Source: a virus
IMG/VR virus record: IMGVR_UViG_3300045918_000157
Location: 22,400 to 86,399 of that record
Length of the DNA stretch: 64,000 nt
Reading direction: 5' to 3' (one strand)
Notes under the pieces: generated by a model
Told to the model about the DNA's origin: nothing
The model's input: the letters and a program-made list of their open reading frames with translations, nothing else
The model's database searches: none
Translations under genes and position numbers: made by a program
Part shown: positions 36,006 to 63,935 of the stretch, piece by piece
Layout of the letters: every line of letters begins with the position of its first letter
Position numbering within the stretch: position 1 is the stretch's first letter

Positions 36006-36239
36006 CTATGAACGTCCTCCCGAAGGCTTTAGAGGCGTTTTAAGGGCCTGCGGAGGGTTCAAGCCACAGCCATATTGGGACAAGAAATTGAGGGCCTTGG
36101 GCGTCGATCTGGAGGCCGTCCAGATTTGAAAACGCTCCGGTAATTCTTGCAATCTAGCCTTTTCCGTACCAGAACCACGAAATTTGACTTCAAGTATTCT
36201 ATCAGTCAAATCGTCAAGACTGCATGGTGAGGCAGCCAT
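36006..36239 (-). CDS. Doubtful hypothetical ORF in partition-repeat region
   Basis: The frame encodes 77 residues but has no ribosome site, and its start lies within the inverted-repeat block. One segment, ERFQIWTASRSTP, resembles NRFQIWMASKGCETP in the protein at 42903-43187, which is the only hint of a real gene. Treat as low confidence. Confidence 0.22.
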   Translation of the reverse strand: MAASPCSLDDLTDRILEVKFRGSGTEKARLQELPERFQIWTASRSTPKALNFLSQYGCGLNPPQALKTPLKPSGGRS

Positions 36240-36280
36240 GCAGTCTTGCAGTCAAACAGTCAAGCTGCCATGCCATCAGA
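36205..36280. repeat. Inverted and direct repeats, candidate centromere site (downstream)
   Basis: A 13-bp perfect inverted repeat (CAAGACTGCATGG / CCATGCAGTCTTG, 36215-36227 and 36236-36248) is followed by GCAGTCAAACAGTCAAGCTGCCATGCC. The block 36232-36259 shares 23 of 28 bases with 37553-37580 on the other side of the ParA cassette. The gap 35948-36275 otherwise holds only one doubtful ORF. Confidence 0.6.
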
Positions 36281-36497
36281 ATCTCAGGCCGCGCTTGGCG
36301 AAGTCAGCCTCAATCAGGCCCATGACATAGCGCTGTATCTTGGTTCTCTCTGCTGTAGTCAGGTGGATGACATGCTCCCACTGGACCCTGTTCATGCGCA
36401 GGGTCAGGTTTACGACATCACCCGGCAGCTTGGCTGGCTTTTCCTCCCTGACAGGTGGAGGAACTTTCATGAAGTCTAAAAGACTTGGCTTAGCCAT
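36276..36497 (-). CDS. Ribbon-helix-helix partition protein (ParB-type CBP)
   Basis: The ATG at 36497 with GGAG upstream gives 73 residues. A Pro/Lys-rich flexible N-terminus precedes VVNLTLRMNRVQWEHVIHLTTAERTKIQRYVMGLIEADFAKRGL, a strand-helix-helix pattern of RHH DNA-binding proteins (the strand is VNLTLRM). In type Ib partition loci such small dimers bind centromere repeats and activate ParA. It is the last gene of the ParA operon and is flanked by the repeats. Confidence 0.68.
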   Translation of the reverse strand: MAKPSLLDFMKVPPPVREEKPAKLPGDVVNLTLRMNRVQWEHVIHLTTAERTKIQRYVMGLIEADFAKRGLRF

Positions 36498-36498
36498 A

Positions 36499-36765
36499 TC
36501 AAACTCCAACCATGTGCTTAACTAACAGACTATCGTACAAAGTGTAAGCCTGCTCAAACTTCCAAGCTAACAAGTCAAGTGTCTTGGACTTCTCTATCTC
36601 TACGCTAAAAGGATTAGAGATAGGCCCACTACGGCTTGGCCTAAGCTTATACTCTCTAAACTGAATGCGAATATTTTCGCATTCAGTGTAGCACTTACTA
36701 AGTTCAAGCATGTAAGCAGCCTGCTCATCGGCAGTTAACTTCTTCCACCTTGCATTAACTAACAT
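36499..36765 (-). CDS. Hypothetical protein in ParA operon
   Basis: The ATG at 36765 overlaps the end of parA by 11 bases and gives 88 residues. The sequence is helical (RWKKLTADEQAAYMLELSKCYTECENIRI, KTLDLLAWKFEQAYTLYDSLL). It sits between parA and the RHH gene, so it may be a partition accessory protein. No family recognised. Confidence 0.55.
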   Translation of the reverse strand: MLVNARWKKLTADEQAAYMLELSKCYTECENIRIQFREYKLRPSRSGPISNPFSVEIEKSKTLDLLAWKFEQAYTLYDSLLVKHMVGV

Positions 36766-37420
36766 GCTCCACCCCACAAGCTTCAATGCTTGTCTCTACT
36801 GCAGCATGTCCGGTGGCTAAGTAACTGAGAATATTTGTGCAAACTTCAGCGACTTCTTTAGCGGGCTTGCCATCCGGTTCAAACTCTGCTACAGCTTGAC
36901 CAGATACTAGTGCCCTCCACATAGATCGCCAATTGTTGACTTGACCCACTACTGGATGACCAGTAGCTTCAAGTGCTATCCTTGTAGCAGAAATCTCAGG
37001 GGCCTTTTGAGGACAGTCAGATAGCAAGAACACGAAGGGCTTGCCACCTATTAGCTTTAGTGCATCAGGCATCGCTGCAAGATCGAGAGGCTCAGGCCTT
37101 ACAGGCACTACTATCAGATCAGCTACTCCAATGATCTGCGCTGTCACTGCTGACACGCTAGGAGGCGAATCAATAATAATCAGGTCGTAACCATCAGCTA
37201 CGGCTCCTGCTATAGCTTGAGGTAAAAAACTTCCAGGTACAGGAACTACCACCGGAGACTCGTTTAGTCTCTGGTTTCTCCATGCAACAGCACTAGCTTG
37301 AGGATCACAGTCAAGGATACATACATTAAGACCTGTACCAATGGCTGCTACCGACAGGTGTACGCAGAGAGTTGTCTTTCCAGCACCCCCTTTTGGGGAA
37401 AAAATGGCAATGACTGGCAC
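36755..37420 (-). CDS. parA: ParA-type partition ATPase
   Basis: A GTG at 37420 with GGAG upstream gives 221 residues; a TTG 15 bases earlier is less likely. The deviant Walker A IFSPKGGAGKTTLCVHL, the switch region CILDCDPQASAVAW and the Walker B-like DLIIIDSPPSVSAV identify the ParA/MinD class. It lacks an N-terminal HTH, as in type Ib (ParF-like) partition ATPases. With the RHH protein and flanking repeats it should segregate a low-copy replicon. Confidence 0.85.
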   Translation of the reverse strand: MPVIAIFSPKGGAGKTTLCVHLSVAAIGTGLNVCILDCDPQASAVAWRNQRLNESPVVVPVPGSFLPQAIAGAVADGYDLIIIDSPPSVSAVTAQIIGVADLIVVPVRPEPLDLAAMPDALKLIGGKPFVFLLSDCPQKAPEISATRIALEATGHPVVGQVNNWRSMWRALVSGQAVAEFEPDGKPAKEVAEVCTNILSYLATGHAAVETSIEACGVEHVS

Positions 37421-37450
37421 GATTTTTGACTCCAAGTTGTTAAGGCTTGG

Positions 37451-37480
37451 ATTATCAGCATATTGGTGTCGTCAAGTCAA
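37451..37480 (-). promoter_or_regulatory. Promoter of the ParA cassette
   Basis: On the minus strand TTGACT (37475-37480) and GATAAT (37451-37456) are separated by 18 bases, each a 5/6 consensus match. The tandem repeats lie about 55 bases upstream, so binding there could regulate the operon. Confidence 0.6.
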
Positions 37481-37533
37481 GAACTCTTTCAGGCATGGGG
37501 CCGATCAGGCGTTAAGGCGTGGGGCCTCTAACT

Positions 37534-37581
37534 CATGCAGGTATGCAGTCAAGCAGCCATGCAGGTATGCAGTCAAGCAGT
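37534..37581. repeat. Tandem 24-bp repeats, candidate centromere (upstream)
   Basis: Two head-to-tail copies of CATGCAGGTATGCAGTCAAG plus CAGC or CAGT differ at one base. Each contains two ATGCAG cores. They lie directly upstream of the parA promoter, the usual place of type Ib parC/parH sites. Confidence 0.65.
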
Positions 37582-37722
37582 CTTCCCGTCCTCCCTACGC
37601 TGCCAGATATGCCGGATCACCAGCTTGTCTCCGTCTCTGAGCAGGCGAATGCGCCCACCACAGATCACACCCCATAGGCCGATAGGGTTTCTCAGATGGC
37701 GTGCCATGTAAATTGGTTTCAT
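37573..37722 (-). CDS. Small basic hypothetical protein
   Basis: This 49-residue frame starts two bases after the upstream stop. It encodes a basic beta-rich peptide (MARHLRNPIGLWGVICGGRIRLLR, DKLVIRHIWQRRE). Its last codons lie in the second tandem repeat. It has no recognised family but keeps the gene spacing of the array. Confidence 0.45.
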   Translation of the reverse strand: MKPIYMARHLRNPIGLWGVICGGRIRLLRDGDKLVIRHIWQRREDGKTA

Positions 37723-42114: not shown

Positions 42115-42684
42115 ATGCTAATCGGCTATGCGCGTGTTTCCACACTAGATCAAGATGTTAATGTTCAACTGGATGCGCTTACCAAAGCAGGCTGTGAGCG
42201 CCTGTTCGATGACAAGATGAGTGGAGCCAAGGTTGACCGTCCCGGCCTGACAAGAGCGTTAGACATGCTTCGTTCAGGCGATTCTCTCGTTGTCTGGAAA
42301 CTTGACAGACTAGGACGTAGCATGAGAAACCTAGTCGATGTCTCTACTGAGTTACAAAAGCAGGGAGTGCAACTGATAAGCCTTACTGACTGCATAGATA
42401 CCAGTACTGCATCAGGTAGGTTTTTCTTTAACGTAATGGCAAGTCTTGCACAGATGGAGCGTGAACTTACTGTAGAGCGGACTCAGGCGGGACTTGCATT
42501 AGCTAGGCTTAATGGCCGTGTCGGTGGTAGGCCTAGATTAATGACTGTCCGTAAGGTTGAAGCTGCCAAAGCCATGCTAGCCAGCGGTATCCCACCGCGT
42601 GACGTAGCTAATAACCTTGGCATCTCAATCCCTACCCTATACCGTTGGATACCAGCGAGTACGGTGCCGGTGCCTACGCTTTAG
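42115..42684 (+). CDS. Serine recombinase (resolvase/invertase)
   Basis: The ATG at 42115 with AGAGG upstream gives 189 residues, the normal size for Tn3/Hin-type small serine recombinases. Residues 1-135 hold the catalytic domain: IGYARVSTLDQD (catalytic Ser), RPGLTRAL, VVWKLDRLGRSMRNL and the TSTASGRFFFNVMASLAQMERELTVERTQAGL helix. The GRVGGRPRL hinge and a C-terminal HTH (RDVANNLGISIPTLYRWI) bind DNA. It is the only rightward gene in the accessory array, so it may be a later acquisition. It could resolve multimers of a plasmid-like genome or invert a segment. Confidence 0.9.
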   Translation: MLIGYARVSTLDQDVNVQLDALTKAGCERLFDDKMSGAKVDRPGLTRALDMLRSGDSLVVWKLDRLGRSMRNLVDVSTELQKQGVQLISLTDCIDTSTASGRFFFNVMASLAQMERELTVERTQAGLALARLNGRVGGRPRLMTVRKVEAAKAMLASGIPPRDVANNLGISIPTLYRWIPASTVPVPTL

Positions 42685-58434: not shown

Positions 58435-59442
58435 TCACTCCAACGGAGCGTCTGTAGCAAAGTGAACTAAGGGCCTCATTGGAATTAACTCAGCGGCTGC
58501 TATCTCTTCTTCCTCTTTAGCCTTCCTAGCTGCCATTCGCTTATCACTAGCGGCTTTAGCTAGTGCCCTCTCTTCGGTGCGGCTCTCATAATCTGCCACT
58601 TCGTCCTCACCATACTTTTCTACCATATTTGCTCTATTTATAGCAGCTAATTGCTCGGCCGTAAGGTCAGGCATGGCTTCTATGTCAGCAAAATCATTAA
58701 TAACTGCTGGTTGCACAGCTTTAGCCCAAAGACACCCCTCATCCTCATAAGTCACGAAAGTTGACCCTTCAGGCTTCGACTCCATCCACATACGTTGACG
58801 CACAGGACCACCGTCTATAGTAAACAAGTACTGAGCATCATCCTTGTCTGCAAGCTTAAGAGCGCCTTTCGGTATGTATTCTTCGTGAGGCTCTTCATCG
58901 TAGTCTTCAGACACTACCTGCTCAAGCTTTTGTATCCTTGCTGTAGACCGAGGTACTGCAATCTTCCCTTCAGGGTGTATTTCAAGCGTTTTGCTAGGAT
59001 TCGGTCCTAGCATGTCAAACTCTTGAGTATCCTGCTGCCACAGTGGGAATACATGCCACGCACCAAGCCCGTACATCCCCGGCTTGCTCATGCAGACATT
59101 GCCATCACGTATCTCTACCTCAACTCTTTGGTCCTCATAGTAAAAGGTAGGGTTTTTATGCCTCCAAAAAGCTGCCGCTAGCGTGTTTGTTGTAGCCCGC
59201 ATTATTAGCATCTCAAGTACTACAAGTACTTCTGAGTCTTCGACGGGGGTCTTTAAGACCTGCGATGCACTCTTGCCGCTGCACCGTCTGCAACCCTTTG
59301 CTATATGCCTTGCCTCCATCTCACCCTTGTTGCCGCAATCTGCACATGTGAACTTGAACTTTGGTTGGGGTGCCTCTACACGCTCACCGAATATTAGGCT
59401 TCCAAGGCGAATACCTTCAAGGTTTAACTTAGGCCTAGCCAT
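58435..59442 (-). CDS. Zinc-ribbon protein with long charged tail, paralogue of next gene
   Basis: The 335-residue protein opens with EGIRLGSLIFGERVEAPQPKF then KFTCADCGNKGEMEARHIAKGCRRC, a four-Cys ribbon closely related in layout to the N-terminus of the next gene. A folded middle domain (TLAAAFWRHKNPTFYYEDQRVEVEI) also has a counterpart there. The C-terminal 130 residues are charged and helical (RALAKAASDKRMAARKAKEEEE). It is probably a DNA- or RNA-associated accessory protein. Confidence 0.62.
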   Translation of the reverse strand: MARPKLNLEGIRLGSLIFGERVEAPQPKFKFTCADCGNKGEMEARHIAKGCRRCSGKSASQVLKTPVEDSEVLVVLEMLIMRATTNTLAAAFWRHKNPTFYYEDQRVEVEIRDGNVCMSKPGMYGLGAWHVFPLWQQDTQEFDMLGPNPSKTLEIHPEGKIAVPRSTARIQKLEQVVSEDYDEEPHEEYIPKGALKLADKDDAQYLFTIDGGPVRQRMWMESKPEGSTFVTYEDEGCLWAKAVQPAVINDFADIEAMPDLTAEQLAAINRANMVEKYGEDEVADYESRTEERALAKAASDKRMAARKAKEEEEIAAAELIPMRPLVHFATDAPLE

Positions 59443-59866
59443 TCCCGTTCTCCTTTACAACATAAAGTTTTGGTGCAGTGTCCTGTTCGTGCACTGAGTT
59501 AACTATCAGGCCGTCAAGGTCCAAGTATGAGACTACAGCAGCAGACGCTTGCATCTTCACACTCACCCTGCGACCCGCGAGATAGAAGGCGGTATCAGGA
59601 TTGTCCTGCAAGGCCTTGTGCAGTTGAGCAGCAGGCATCTCAAGTGCCCTAGTGCTGGTTACAGCAAGCATCGTAGTTACGGTCGCCTGCGCGTTTGGGG
59701 GGCAATGGCACTTTGGACAACCATTACTTAAGTACCTGTAGTTGCGCTCGCCTTTGTGCTTGCAGTGCAAGCATGTGTAGTGGTATCGGGGTTGGTCGCT
59801 AGGTATTCGCTCACCTATTAGCAGTGTCCCTAGTGTTCGACCGGTTACGTCAAGTTGTTTCGACAT
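59435..59866 (-). CDS. Zinc-ribbon protein, first gene of the leftward operon
   Basis: The 143-residue protein has GRTLGTLLIGERIPSDQPRYHYTCLHCKHKGERNYRYLSNGCPKC, a zinc ribbon, and a second part (ALQDNPDTAFYLAGRRVSVKMQ) that parallels the larger neighbour's YYEDQRVEVEI segment. It is the first gene under the leftward operator-bearing promoter, so it is likely among the earliest expressed products. Confidence 0.62.
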   Translation of the reverse strand: MSKQLDVTGRTLGTLLIGERIPSDQPRYHYTCLHCKHKGERNYRYLSNGCPKCHCPPNAQATVTTMLAVTSTRALEMPAAQLHKALQDNPDTAFYLAGRRVSVKMQASAAVVSYLDLDGLIVNSVHEQDTAPKLYVVKENGNG

Positions 59867-59915
59867 TGGTACGTCCTTTTCAGCACTAAGCAGTTCATGT
59901 TTTCGAGTAAATTTC

Positions 59916-59945
59916 TTTATAACACGATTTTTCGTGTAAATTACA
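59916..59945 (-). promoter_or_regulatory. Leftward extended -10 promoter with operator 1
   Basis: On the minus strand TGT-TATAAA (59916-59924) is an extended -10. The operator TGTAATTTACA (59935-59945) lies 13 bases upstream of the -10 hexamer, over the -35 region. It would drive the large leftward accessory operon. Confidence 0.6.
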
Positions 59946-60454
59946 AAAGTATTGTAATCAATAAATAGGGGGGTCTCCCTCGCGCAAACCGTGTTTTGAA
60001 ATCACATGGTGTACACGGTGTGATTTCAAAACTCTATAAAGAGGTTTTTCAACACCGCACCCTAATTAAATACATAGTTTTGTAATTTACATTTGTATTT
60101 ATACTGTTATTGTAATAAACAAGGTTTTATGAAAAGCTTGTATCAGTTGAAGGTCTTTTAAAGCTTGCTAAAGCCTGTGCAAGTGCCGCAAAATTTCCGA
60201 TAACATGGCAATATAACAGAGCTAAGTAGTTTAATACCAATTCTACAATTGAATCGTGCAAACTTGACAGAAACGGGTTTAATACGTAAGCAAAAATGTA
60301 ATCTATTTTGTAATTTTGAAATAAACACTAAGTCAAGTCAGTTGACCTTACGCGGCGATTTATCAACCTTGCACACCAGTCTTAGATAGCAGCTGTTATT
60401 CTGAACAATTTCATTCATACACTGTGTAAATTACAGGCCGGAGTGTAAATTACA
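59935..60454. promoter_or_regulatory. Four copies of palindromic operator TGTAAWTTACA
   Basis: Perfect copies of the 11-bp palindrome lie at 59935-59945, 60081-60091 (read as TGTAATTTACA), 60425-60435 and 60444-60454. The last two are spaced 19 bp apart, about two helical turns. Extra half-sites (TTGTAAT) are scattered between. Copies 1, 2 and 4 each sit 8-13 bases upstream of a -10-like hexamer. The pattern fits a dimeric repressor or activator. Confidence 0.7.
59993..60032. repeat. 40-bp near-perfect palindrome
   Basis: GTTTTGAAATCACA and its exact reverse complement flank a 12-base centre that itself contains the palindrome GTGTACAC. Eighteen of 20 base pairs match over the full dyad. It lies between operators 1 and 2, and could be a second regulator site, a cruciform or an origin element. 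Confidence 0.75.
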
Positions 60455-60470
60455 AGAATTTTGCTATGAT
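60444..60470 (+). promoter_or_regulatory. Rightward extended -10 promoter with operator 4
   Basis: TGC-TATGAT (60462-60470) is an extended -10. The operator at 60444-60454 ends ten bases before the hexamer and covers the -35 region, so a bound protein would block or replace polymerase contacts. Transcription should begin near 60477. Confidence 0.6.
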
Positions 60471-60476
60471 TTAAAT

Positions 60477-60710
60477 AGCAAAAGTCAAGAATGACAAAGG
60501 GAATGACATTGAGCCTGTGCAAGACTCAATGTTATTGACTCTGATATTGAAATTAGGATTAAAGCTTGCTGGTTTTGTGCTAGGATCGCAGCTTGAAGCT
60601 TTCATTTCGGCCCTTGCAAGACCTAAGAAATGAAAGCTTCAATTACTGACCCTTGGGGATTTCCTGTTGCAAGCTGGAATGAGCCAAGGGTTTTGTTTTT
60701 GGAGCCTCTT
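60477..60710 (+). ncRNA. Structured leader RNA with three hairpins sharing a loop motif
   Basis: Hairpin A is CATTGAG/CTCAATG (60507-60531). Hairpin B is a perfect 16-bp stem (60593-60608 with 60627-60642). Hairpin C is the terminator at 60650-60690. The loops of all three contain TGCAAG (60518, 60614 and 60667). The B and C loops both contain TTGCAAG, which can pair with CTTGCAA, so a kissing-loop is possible. The leader ends at the ATG at 60711. Confidence 0.5.
60650..60700 (+). terminator. Intrinsic terminator/attenuator before the rightward gene
   Basis: CCCTTGG pairs with CCAAGGG (60684-60690), with an inner TTCC/GGAA stem, and is followed by TTTTGTTTTT. It lies ten bases before the ribosome-site and ATG of the only gene in this transcript, so termination there would switch the gene off. 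Confidence 0.7.
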
Positions 60711-61031
60711 ATGACCAACGATGACACTACACGCAACGAAGAAATAACCAGTTGCAAACCAGCCACCTTACACAAGGTAATGAAGAGTCCTTCTAACGTT
60801 AGAAAGATAGATAGAGTGGCTCGAAGTAATTCAGATGTGCAAGGTTATGTCAACTTTCTATTAGGAGCTTCAAAGCTCCGCGAAGAGTACATAGAACTGT
60901 TACTTGAAAGGATCGACCTTTTAAACCTTGAGTTGGACAATAAAGACTTATTGCTTGACGATGTATATGATGGAATCATGGCAGAGCGAGCCAACGAGGA
61001 ACTGACAAAAGGAAATGACATTAGAACTTGA
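60711..61031 (+). CDS. Hypothetical helical protein under attenuator control
   Basis: GGAG six bases before the ATG at 60711 makes this the best start (106 residues); the ATG at 60630 lies inside hairpin B. The protein has a basic middle (HKVMKSPSNVRKIDRVARSN) and an acidic coiled-coil C-terminus (EEYIELLLERIDLLNLELDNKDLLLDDV). No family was recognised. As the only product of the rightward switch promoter it is a candidate regulator or replication factor. Confidence 0.6.
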   Translation: MTNDDTTRNEEITSCKPATLHKVMKSPSNVRKIDRVARSNSDVQGYVNFLLGASKLREEYIELLLERIDLLNLELDNKDLLLDDVYDGIMAERANEELTKGNDIRT

Positions 61032-62072: not shown

Positions 62073-62291
62073 TTAGCTGCTAACGTCGCGGTGCGCGTGG
62101 ATGGTGTCCACAACCTGCTTTGCCTCGTACAGGCCAAGCTTGTACTGGGCACAGATGAACTTTATCGCAGCGACTTTGTTGTTCTCGGTGACCTTGATAA
62201 GGCGATATTCCGCAGCAGTGATTTCCACGAACTGCTCACGCACAGGATAAGAAACGTTAACCCTGTCGGCCTGACGTTGAACTGAAGCCAT
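62073..62291 (-). CDS. Small protein with L7/L12 C-terminal-like motif
   Basis: The 72-residue protein contains NNKVAAIKFICAQYKLGLYEAKQVVDTI. This resembles the helix-turn-helix of ribosomal L7/L12 C-terminal domains (K.AAIK.....LGLKEAK..VD), the surface that recruits translation factors. It may mimic that surface or simply share a small fold. It follows leader copy 2. Confidence 0.58.
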   Translation of the reverse strand: MASVQRQADRVNVSYPVREQFVEITAAEYRLIKVTENNKVAAIKFICAQYKLGLYEAKQVVDTIHAHRDVSS

Positions 62292-63528: not shown

Positions 63529-63777
63529 TTATGCGCTAACGCCGGCTATTGCGATGTACGCGCTAACAGCCTTGCAGGCCTGTTCAAGTTCGTTTTGCGC
63601 CACACGTTGCGCTCCATACGCCAGCATCAGCGCATCATGCGTGGTGGCGTTGTTATGCTGCCAATGCACCTCTTCCGCTAACTGCACCGCAATAGTGCAG
63701 TTTACGTACTCAAGGCCCGCATTAGCTGCAAGCACACGCATATCAAGCGGGATAGATTGGGTATCAAGTGGTTTCAT
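63529..63777 (-). CDS. Hypothetical helical protein
   Basis: The 82-residue protein (VNCTIAVQLAEEVHWQHNNATTHDALMLAYGAQRVAQNELEQA) is helical. AAAAGGAG precedes the ATG. No family recognised. Confidence 0.55.
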   Translation of the reverse strand: MKPLDTQSIPLDMRVLAANAGLEYVNCTIAVQLAEEVHWQHNNATTHDALMLAYGAQRVAQNELEQACKAVSAYIAIAGVSA

Positions 63778-63935
63778 GGATAGCTCCTTTTAAGTTTCAA
63801 TGCCTGCTTACGCAAGCTCTTTGGCCCAAGCACACGTATGCTAGGCCCGTTGCCTATTACTGTAGGCTGCACAGGCCGCACATGATTCTTACCTATGTGC
63901 GGGACGTACTTGTGCTTTTCCCTTGCTGCGCCCAC
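63774..63935 (-). CDS. Small basic hypothetical protein
   Basis: A GTG at 63935, after AAGGG, gives 53 residues of basic sequence (GAAREKHKYVPHIGKNHVRP, RVLGPKSLRKQALKLKRSYP). Its stop overlaps the next start (ATGA). The frame is also open upstream to the window edge, so a longer form is possible. Confidence 0.42.
   Translation of the reverse strand: MGAAREKHKYVPHIGKNHVRPVQPTVIGNGPSIRVLGPKSLRKQALKLKRSYP

What the first reader, a model, noticed from the sequence alone, without database searches (positions are those of the whole stretch)
59867..60710. Divergent switch region with four identical palindromic operators
TGTAA-W-TTACA occurs perfectly four times within about 520 bp. Copies 1 and 4 overlap the -35 zones of opposed extended -10 promoters, and copy 2 lies 8 bases before a TATACT. 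This symmetrical layout is that of an early-gene or lysis/lysogeny switch. The cognate regulator was not recognised; the winged-helix-like protein at 47.3 kb and the 60.7 kb product are candidates.
Basis: partly seen in the sequence, partly recalled or inferred. Interest (0 to 1): 0.75.

Follow-up and report, generated by a model that had tools for sequence, protein, structure and literature searches.

The report
Phage operator hub with unknown regulator
A roughly 840-base non-coding stretch of an uncultivated bacterial virus carries four identical protein-docking palindromes beside two outward-facing promoters; it looks like a genuine but fairly ordinary local gene switch, and the protein that reads it has not been identified.

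Summary
TGTAAWTTACA occurs perfectly at 59935, 60081, 60425 and 60444 and nowhere else in the 86.4-kb virus record. Chance gives 0.004 copies in this region, and 0 of 3000 shuffles repeat any such palindrome four times. Copies 1 and 4 sit 13 and 10 bases from outward-facing extended -10 elements.

I read it as a local operator hub, probably repressed. A dimeric regulator covers the -35 zone of a leftward promoter (start about 59909), which drives an operon opening with two paralogous zinc-ribbon genes. It also covers a rightward promoter (start about 60477), which makes a structured 224-nt leader with an intrinsic terminator directly before a 106-aa gene. Variable operator-to--10 spacing (13, 10, 8) favours steric repression over fixed-geometry activation.

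A lysis/lysogeny switch is not shown: no integrase, HTH_3 repressor or protelomerase was found, and the main divergence of structural and early genes lies elsewhere. A parA cassette with iterons and a serine recombinase make plasmid-like persistence possible.

The same palindrome flanks regulator genes of unrelated families elsewhere (XRE, S24, KfrA_N, PadR), so it does not identify the regulator. The array is absent from the nearest relative examined. New member of a known kind.

The parts
59935..59945 (.). operator copy 1, TGTAAATTACA (spans about -26 to -36 of the leftward promoter)
60081..60091 (.). operator copy 2, TGTAATTTACA (inverted relative to copy 1; 18-nt flank shared at 94%)
60425..60435 (.). 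operator copy 3, TGTAAATTACA, tandem with copy 4 (19 bp start to start)
60444..60454 (.). operator copy 4, TGTAAATTACA (spans about -33 to -23 of the rightward promoter)
59916..59924 (-). extended -10 TGTTATAAA of the presumed leftward promoter; predicted start about 59909
   Evidence: consensus match only
60462..60470 (+). extended -10 TGCTATGAT of the presumed rightward promoter; predicted start about 60477
   Evidence: consensus match only
60100..60105 (+). TATACT, possible third -10 after copy 2; weak
59924..59939 (.). ACACGATTTTTCGTGT inverted repeat between copy 1 and the leftward -10
59993..60032 (.). 40-bp near-perfect inverted repeat (20-bp arms, 90%), strong hairpin between copies 1 and 2
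60459..60483 (.). inverted repeat TTTTGCTAT-N7-ATAGCAAAA spanning the rightward -10 and start
60477..60710 (+). presumed structured leader RNA of the rightward transcript; fold z-score -3.3
60506..60532 (+). leader hairpin 1, loop CCTGTGCAAGA
60593..60642 (+). leader hairpin 2, perfect 16-bp stem, loop with CTTGCAAG
60648..60700 (+). leader hairpin 3 plus TTTTGTTTTT: intrinsic terminator directly before the gene
60711..61031 (+). 106-aa gene, only rightward gene here; GGAG at 60701-60704; short helices then one long predicted helix; no homologue found
59435..59866 (-). first leftward gene, 143 aa, N-terminal zinc ribbon; candidate regulator
58435..59442 (-). second leftward gene, 335 aa, paralogue of the first over 135 aa (E 5e-17)

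Best explanation
The stretch 59867-60710 is a local transcription hub inside the leftward early block of a phage distantly related to Lanavirus. A phage-encoded homodimeric DNA-binding protein recognises TGTAAWTTACA. Bound at copy 1 and at copies 3-4 it covers the -35 zone of two outward extended -10 promoters, and most likely represses them, possibly cooperatively across the tandem pair and by looping through copy 2. The leftward promoter would start the operon beginning with two zinc-ribbon paralogues. The rightward promoter would make a structured leader of about 224 nt ending in an intrinsic terminator, with read-through giving the 106-aa protein. Shown: the palindromes, their uniqueness in the record, the predicted hairpins and the gene layout. 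Inferred: promoter activity, dimer binding, repression, attenuation. Unknown: which protein binds; the neighbours are the first candidates by analogy with other TGTAAWTTACA loci.
For: Palindromes far above chance and confined to this region. Non-coding, 36% GC against about 49% around it. Outward extended -10s at both outermost copies; only 31 such elements occur on both strands of the 64-kb window. Copies 1 and 2 share 17 of 18 bases in inverted orientation. Operator-to--10 gaps of 13, 10 and 8 are not helical multiples, which suits steric repression better than an activator with fixed geometry (inference). The leader folds better than all 200 shuffles. In unrelated replicons, TGTAAWTTACA arrays lie directly beside regulator genes: an S24 repressor (L011), KfrA_N (L012, L019; four copies), HTH_3 (L021, L023, L041, L042), PadR (L035).
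Against: No DNA-binding family was recognised in either neighbour. Promoters are consensus matches only, and the outward pair has about a 2% chance level given the AT-rich composition. The relative G002 lacks the motif even with one mismatch, so there is no comparative conservation. A replication or partition role cannot be excluded by sequence.
Confidence: 0.55

Rival explanations
1. Activator-dependent middle promoters: the palindrome replaces the -35 element and a phage activator bound there recruits host RNA polymerase to an extended -10, as MotA does in T4.
For: Both promoters have poor -35 hexamers (4/6 at 19 bp, 3/6 at 15 bp) with good extended -10s; the palindromes occupy the -35 zone.
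Against: Spacing to the -10 differs by 3 bp between the two promoters, about 100 degrees of helix; extended -10 promoters can work without a -35. A search for operator plus extended -10 across IMG/VR gave a 10-bp spacing peak that proved to be conserved coding sequence.
Confidence: 0.18
2. Lysis/lysogeny (or plasmid-prophage maintenance) switch: mutually exclusive divergent transcription under one repressor.
For: Divergent operator-bearing promoters; parA flanked by 8-bp iterons and a serine recombinase fit extrachromosomal prophage life.
Against: No integrase, HTH_3 repressor or protelomerase in six frames; rightward arm is one gene behind a terminator; the main early/structural divergence is elsewhere; Lanavirus-type phages are not known to me as temperate (memory).
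Confidence: 0.12
3. Replication origin or other replication/segregation site: the palindromes are initiator or condensation sites in an AT-rich, hairpin-rich stretch, and the rightward RNA is a primer.
For: AT-rich non-coding stretch with strong hairpins; extra TGTAAT half-sites at 59953, 60111, 60309.
Against: GC skew follows gene strand and gives no origin signal; the likely centromere is the iterons beside parA; copies are irregularly spaced, unlike iterons.
Confidence: 0.1
4. Sites for a host or co-resident plasmid regulator rather than a phage protein.
For: No regulator recognised in the record; several bacterial regulators have the same operator beside their genes; KfrA_N absent from the record.
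Against: Host unknown; those regulators belong to unrelated families, so the motif is generic.
Confidence: 0.05

Closest known systems
Phage divergent operator/promoter regions (lambda OR, N15/PY54 immB, phi29 A2b-A2c/A3 with p4 sites)
   Same: Several identical inverted-repeat sites within about 0.5 kb overlapping opposed promoters (family knowledge).
   Different: No CI/Cro-type protein recognised; lies inside the early block; rightward arm is one gene behind a structured leader and terminator.
KfrA autoregulation on plasmids (RA3, R751) and the KfrA_N gene of L012/L019
   Same: L012/L019 carry four TGTAAWTTACA copies just upstream of a KfrA_N gene. RA3 KfrA represses its own promoter through a repeated TGTA-containing operator (TGTATTGTA, five copies; PMC7783346).
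   Different: No KfrA_N domain in six frames of this record; copies here are dispersed over 520 bp instead of packed.
S24/CI-type repressor with a tandem TGTAAWTTACA operator (IMG/VR contig of L011)
   Same: Same palindrome, directly upstream of a phage-type repressor.
   Different: Two copies 15 bp apart, single promoter; no HTH_3 protein found here.
T4 MotA middle promoters
   Same: Binding site in place of the -35 with an extended -10 (family knowledge).
   Different: MotA box is a fixed-position, non-palindromic site; here palindromic with variable spacing.
Lanavirus (Pseudomonas phage Lana)
   Same: Overall genome layout: rightward structural genes, long leftward early block, non-coding gap in the early block.
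   Different: DNA polymerase about 26% identical; no palindrome array.

Membership tests
Repressor-operator divergent switch | Repeated identical operators overlapping opposed promoters | tested here: met
   (promoters by consensus only)
Repressor-operator divergent switch | Cognate repressor gene in or next to the region | tested here: inconclusive
   No known DNA-binding family in the neighbours; zinc-ribbon paralogues are candidates
Repressor-operator divergent switch | Protein binding and regulation | not testable with these tools
   needs EMSA or reporter assays
Lysis/lysogeny switch (lambda-type) | CI/Cro-type HTH regulators | tested here: not met
   PF01381 absent in six frames at E 1; no HTH repressor among called early proteins
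Lysis/lysogeny switch (lambda-type) | Tyrosine integrase or protelomerase | tested here: not met
   a serine recombinase exists at 42115-42684
KfrA-type autoregulated operator | KfrA_N protein | tested here: not met
   PF11740 no match at E 10
T4 middle-type activated promoter | Fixed distance from activator box to -10 | tested here: not met
   13, 10 and 8 bases
Replication origin with iterons | Regularly spaced directly repeated initiator sites | tested here: not met
   start spacings 146, 344, 19; mixed orientation

The most novel reading that the evidence does not exclude
The palindromes are read by a DNA-binding protein of an undescribed type, either one of the two zinc-ribbon paralogues or the 106-aa helical protein, and the rightward leader is an RNA attenuator, giving a two-layer (operator plus terminator) switch for a plasmid-like phage.
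Probability: 0.15. Interest if true: 0.55.

Novelty: new member of a known kind. Interest (0 to 1): 0.33.

Why it matters
If confirmed, it marks the control point of an early operon in a phage lineage with almost no annotated regulators, and gives a compact bait (one 11-bp palindrome) with which to fish out an unrecognised regulator. The comparison also shows that TGTAAWTTACA arrays occur next to regulator genes of unrelated families (XRE, S24, KfrA_N, PadR), so the motif alone should not be used to name the regulator.

Tried and rejected
(1) A shared phage promoter class 'operator + extended -10': 84 IMG/VR contigs matched with a sharp spacing peak at 10, but the matches are a conserved coding sequence (reading ...KPNFVNYMFKDDMI...) and a second repeated coding sequence, so rejected. 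(2) KfrA_N as regulator: strong in L012/L019, absent here. (3) The small protein encoded beside parA (36276-36497), which looks like a ribbon-helix-helix protein by eye, as the binder: parA has its own 8-bp iterons and no TGTAA palindrome. Pfam RHH_1 did not match and a single-sequence model gave no RHH fold. (4) Winged-helix protein at 47.3 kb: no support from Pfam, NCBIfam or PDB. (5) Long palindrome 59993-60032 as a telomere site: no protelomerase. (6) A second copy of the region elsewhere in the record: none. (7) Relatives by DNA or by flanking proteins in INPHARED and IMG/VR: none for the region; a near-identical 45-kb contig does not cover it. (8) Rfam: nothing above threshold.

Full report
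What was checked. TGTAAWTTACA is present perfectly four times, at 59935, 60081, 60425 and 60444. The window is bases 22400-86399 of an 86,399-bp IMG/VR virus record, and the record holds no further perfect copy. In dinucleotide shuffles of 59867-60710 the mean count is 0.004, and in 3000 shuffles no 5-N-5 palindrome of any sequence reached four copies. Allowing two mismatches adds nothing over expectation (20 against 18.7), so this is a local array and not a genome-wide operator. The stretch has no good ORF and is 36% G+C in a genome of about 49%.

Promoters. On the - strand TG-T-TATAAA (59916-59924) lies 13 bases beyond copy 1. On the + strand TG-C-TATGAT (60462-60470) lies 10 bases beyond copy 4. 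TATACT (60100-60105) lies 8 bases beyond copy 2. Extended -10 elements of this quality are rare in the window (31 on both strands), and two of the three in this region face outward from the outermost palindromes. Composition-matched shuffles give both in 115 of 5000 cases. The promoters are therefore likely but not proven; a plain -35/-10 scan finds no surplus, and -35 hexamers are poor. Because the palindrome-to--10 distance differs by 2 to 5 bases among the three, a protein that blocks polymerase is a better fit than an activator that must touch it in a fixed way (inference).

Surroundings. The leftward arm starts an operon with two tandem paralogues (59435-59866 and 58435-59442; 28% identity over 135 aa, E 5e-17). 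Both begin with a CxxC...CxxC zinc ribbon (weak HypA, FmdB and zinc-ribbon matches). The rightward arm is a leader of about 224 nt with three hairpins, one a perfect 16-bp stem. It folds better than all 200 shuffles (z -3.3). It ends in a hairpin followed by TTTTGTTTTT at 60691-60700, immediately before a GGAG and the ATG at 60711. That ATG opens a 106-aa gene; the mechanical ORF starts at 60630, inside hairpin 2, and is less likely. The 106-aa protein has no homologue in INPHARED, no useful Pfam or PDB match and a single-sequence model of two short helices and one long helix with no PDB neighbour. Attenuation of this gene is a plausible but untested second layer.

Place in the genome. Structural genes run rightward and a leftward block of about 47 kb follows. 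The block's start and the divergence from the structural module lie at L005 2117-2971, which has its own repeats spaced 38-39 bp. Pseudomonas phage Lana has the same plan, though its DNA polymerase is only about 26% identical. A closer relative, IMG/VR contig G002 (terminase 67% identical), keeps a similar order of early genes and has a gap of about 520 bp in the equivalent place, but no TGTAAWTTACA even with one mismatch and no repeated palindrome. The array is thus recent or fast-changing in this lineage, and comparative support for its function is missing.

Other users of the palindrome. Pairs of TGTAAWTTACA 6-12 bases apart were sought in 84,980 bacterial and archaeal genomes, and pairs up to 30 bases apart in IMG/VR. 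Directly beside some of these arrays lie genes for HTH_3 proteins (L021, L023, L041, L042), PadR (L035), a Phd-type antitoxin (L024), an S24 repressor (L011) and KfrA_N (L012 and L019, four copies each). RA3 KfrA is known to repress its own promoter through repeated TGTATTGTA elements (PMC7783346). So the palindrome looks like a recurrent operator whose regulator often lies next door, but the regulators belong to unrelated protein families. In the present record KfrA_N, HTH_3 and RHH_1 were not found. The neighbours are therefore the first candidates, and may be an unrecognised type of DNA-binding protein.

Lifestyle. A lysis/lysogeny switch is not established. No tyrosine integrase, HTH_3 repressor or protelomerase is present. 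There is a ParA (NF041546, E 9e-43 but below that model's cut-off) whose relatives include one in phiHAP-1, which I recall as an extrachromosomal prophage (memory). It is flanked by 8-bp tandem iterons, and a serine recombinase lies at 42115-42684. Plasmid-like persistence is possible, and then a maintenance switch would be needed, but nothing ties it to this region.

Verdict. The specific reading (lysis/lysogeny switch) and the named regulator candidates are not supported. It is a new member of a known kind of thing, with an unidentified regulator and an uncharacterised structured leader as its more interesting parts.

Noticed in passing
window 36191-37584: parA (36755-37435, -) and a small neighbouring gene are flanked by 8-bp tandem iterons: six copies at 37534-37581 (CATGCAGG TATGCAGT CAAGCAGC ...) and related motifs at 36191-36272. 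This looks like a centromere of a ParA partition cassette in a Lana-like phage.
   Followed up: partly
window 42115-42684 (+): Serine recombinase/resolvase (PF00239, E 8e-45), a lone rightward gene inside the leftward block.
   Followed up: no
window 63774-63935 and L005 41-202: The record's two ends carry the same 53-aa ORF with two amino-acid differences, so the record probably overlaps itself (imperfect terminal repeat) and is close to a complete genome.
   Followed up: no
L005 2287-2570: AT-rich divergence region before the terminase genes with repeats (CTTACATRRGACTGACA-like) 38-39 bp apart: probably the main early control region or another origin candidate.
   Followed up: no
L015 5558-10275 (IMGVR_UViG_3300033463_008284): Unrelated phage contig with 12 TGTAAWTTACA copies in front of about nine small genes, many as a composite module: two palindromes around TYCCGGA, then TTGACA and TATAAT. 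A repeated two-operator promoter worth its own study.
   Followed up: partly
L005 1455-1493 and window 60506-60532, 60593-60642, 60648-60692: Several of the strongest hairpins of the record share a loop motif like YKTGCAAG; whether this is a common terminator loop or a protein or RNA contact is unknown.
   Followed up: partly
window 60558-60569 and 60669-60680: ATTAAAGCTTGC can pair with GCAAGCTGGAAT (83%); this would be incompatible with the nested terminator hairpin, a possible antiterminator. It may be chance.
   Followed up: no
window 62073-62291 (-): 72-aa protein with a ribosomal L7/L12 C-terminal-like domain (best Pfam E 7e-5 in the set scanned; assigned to this protein by eye).
   Followed up: no
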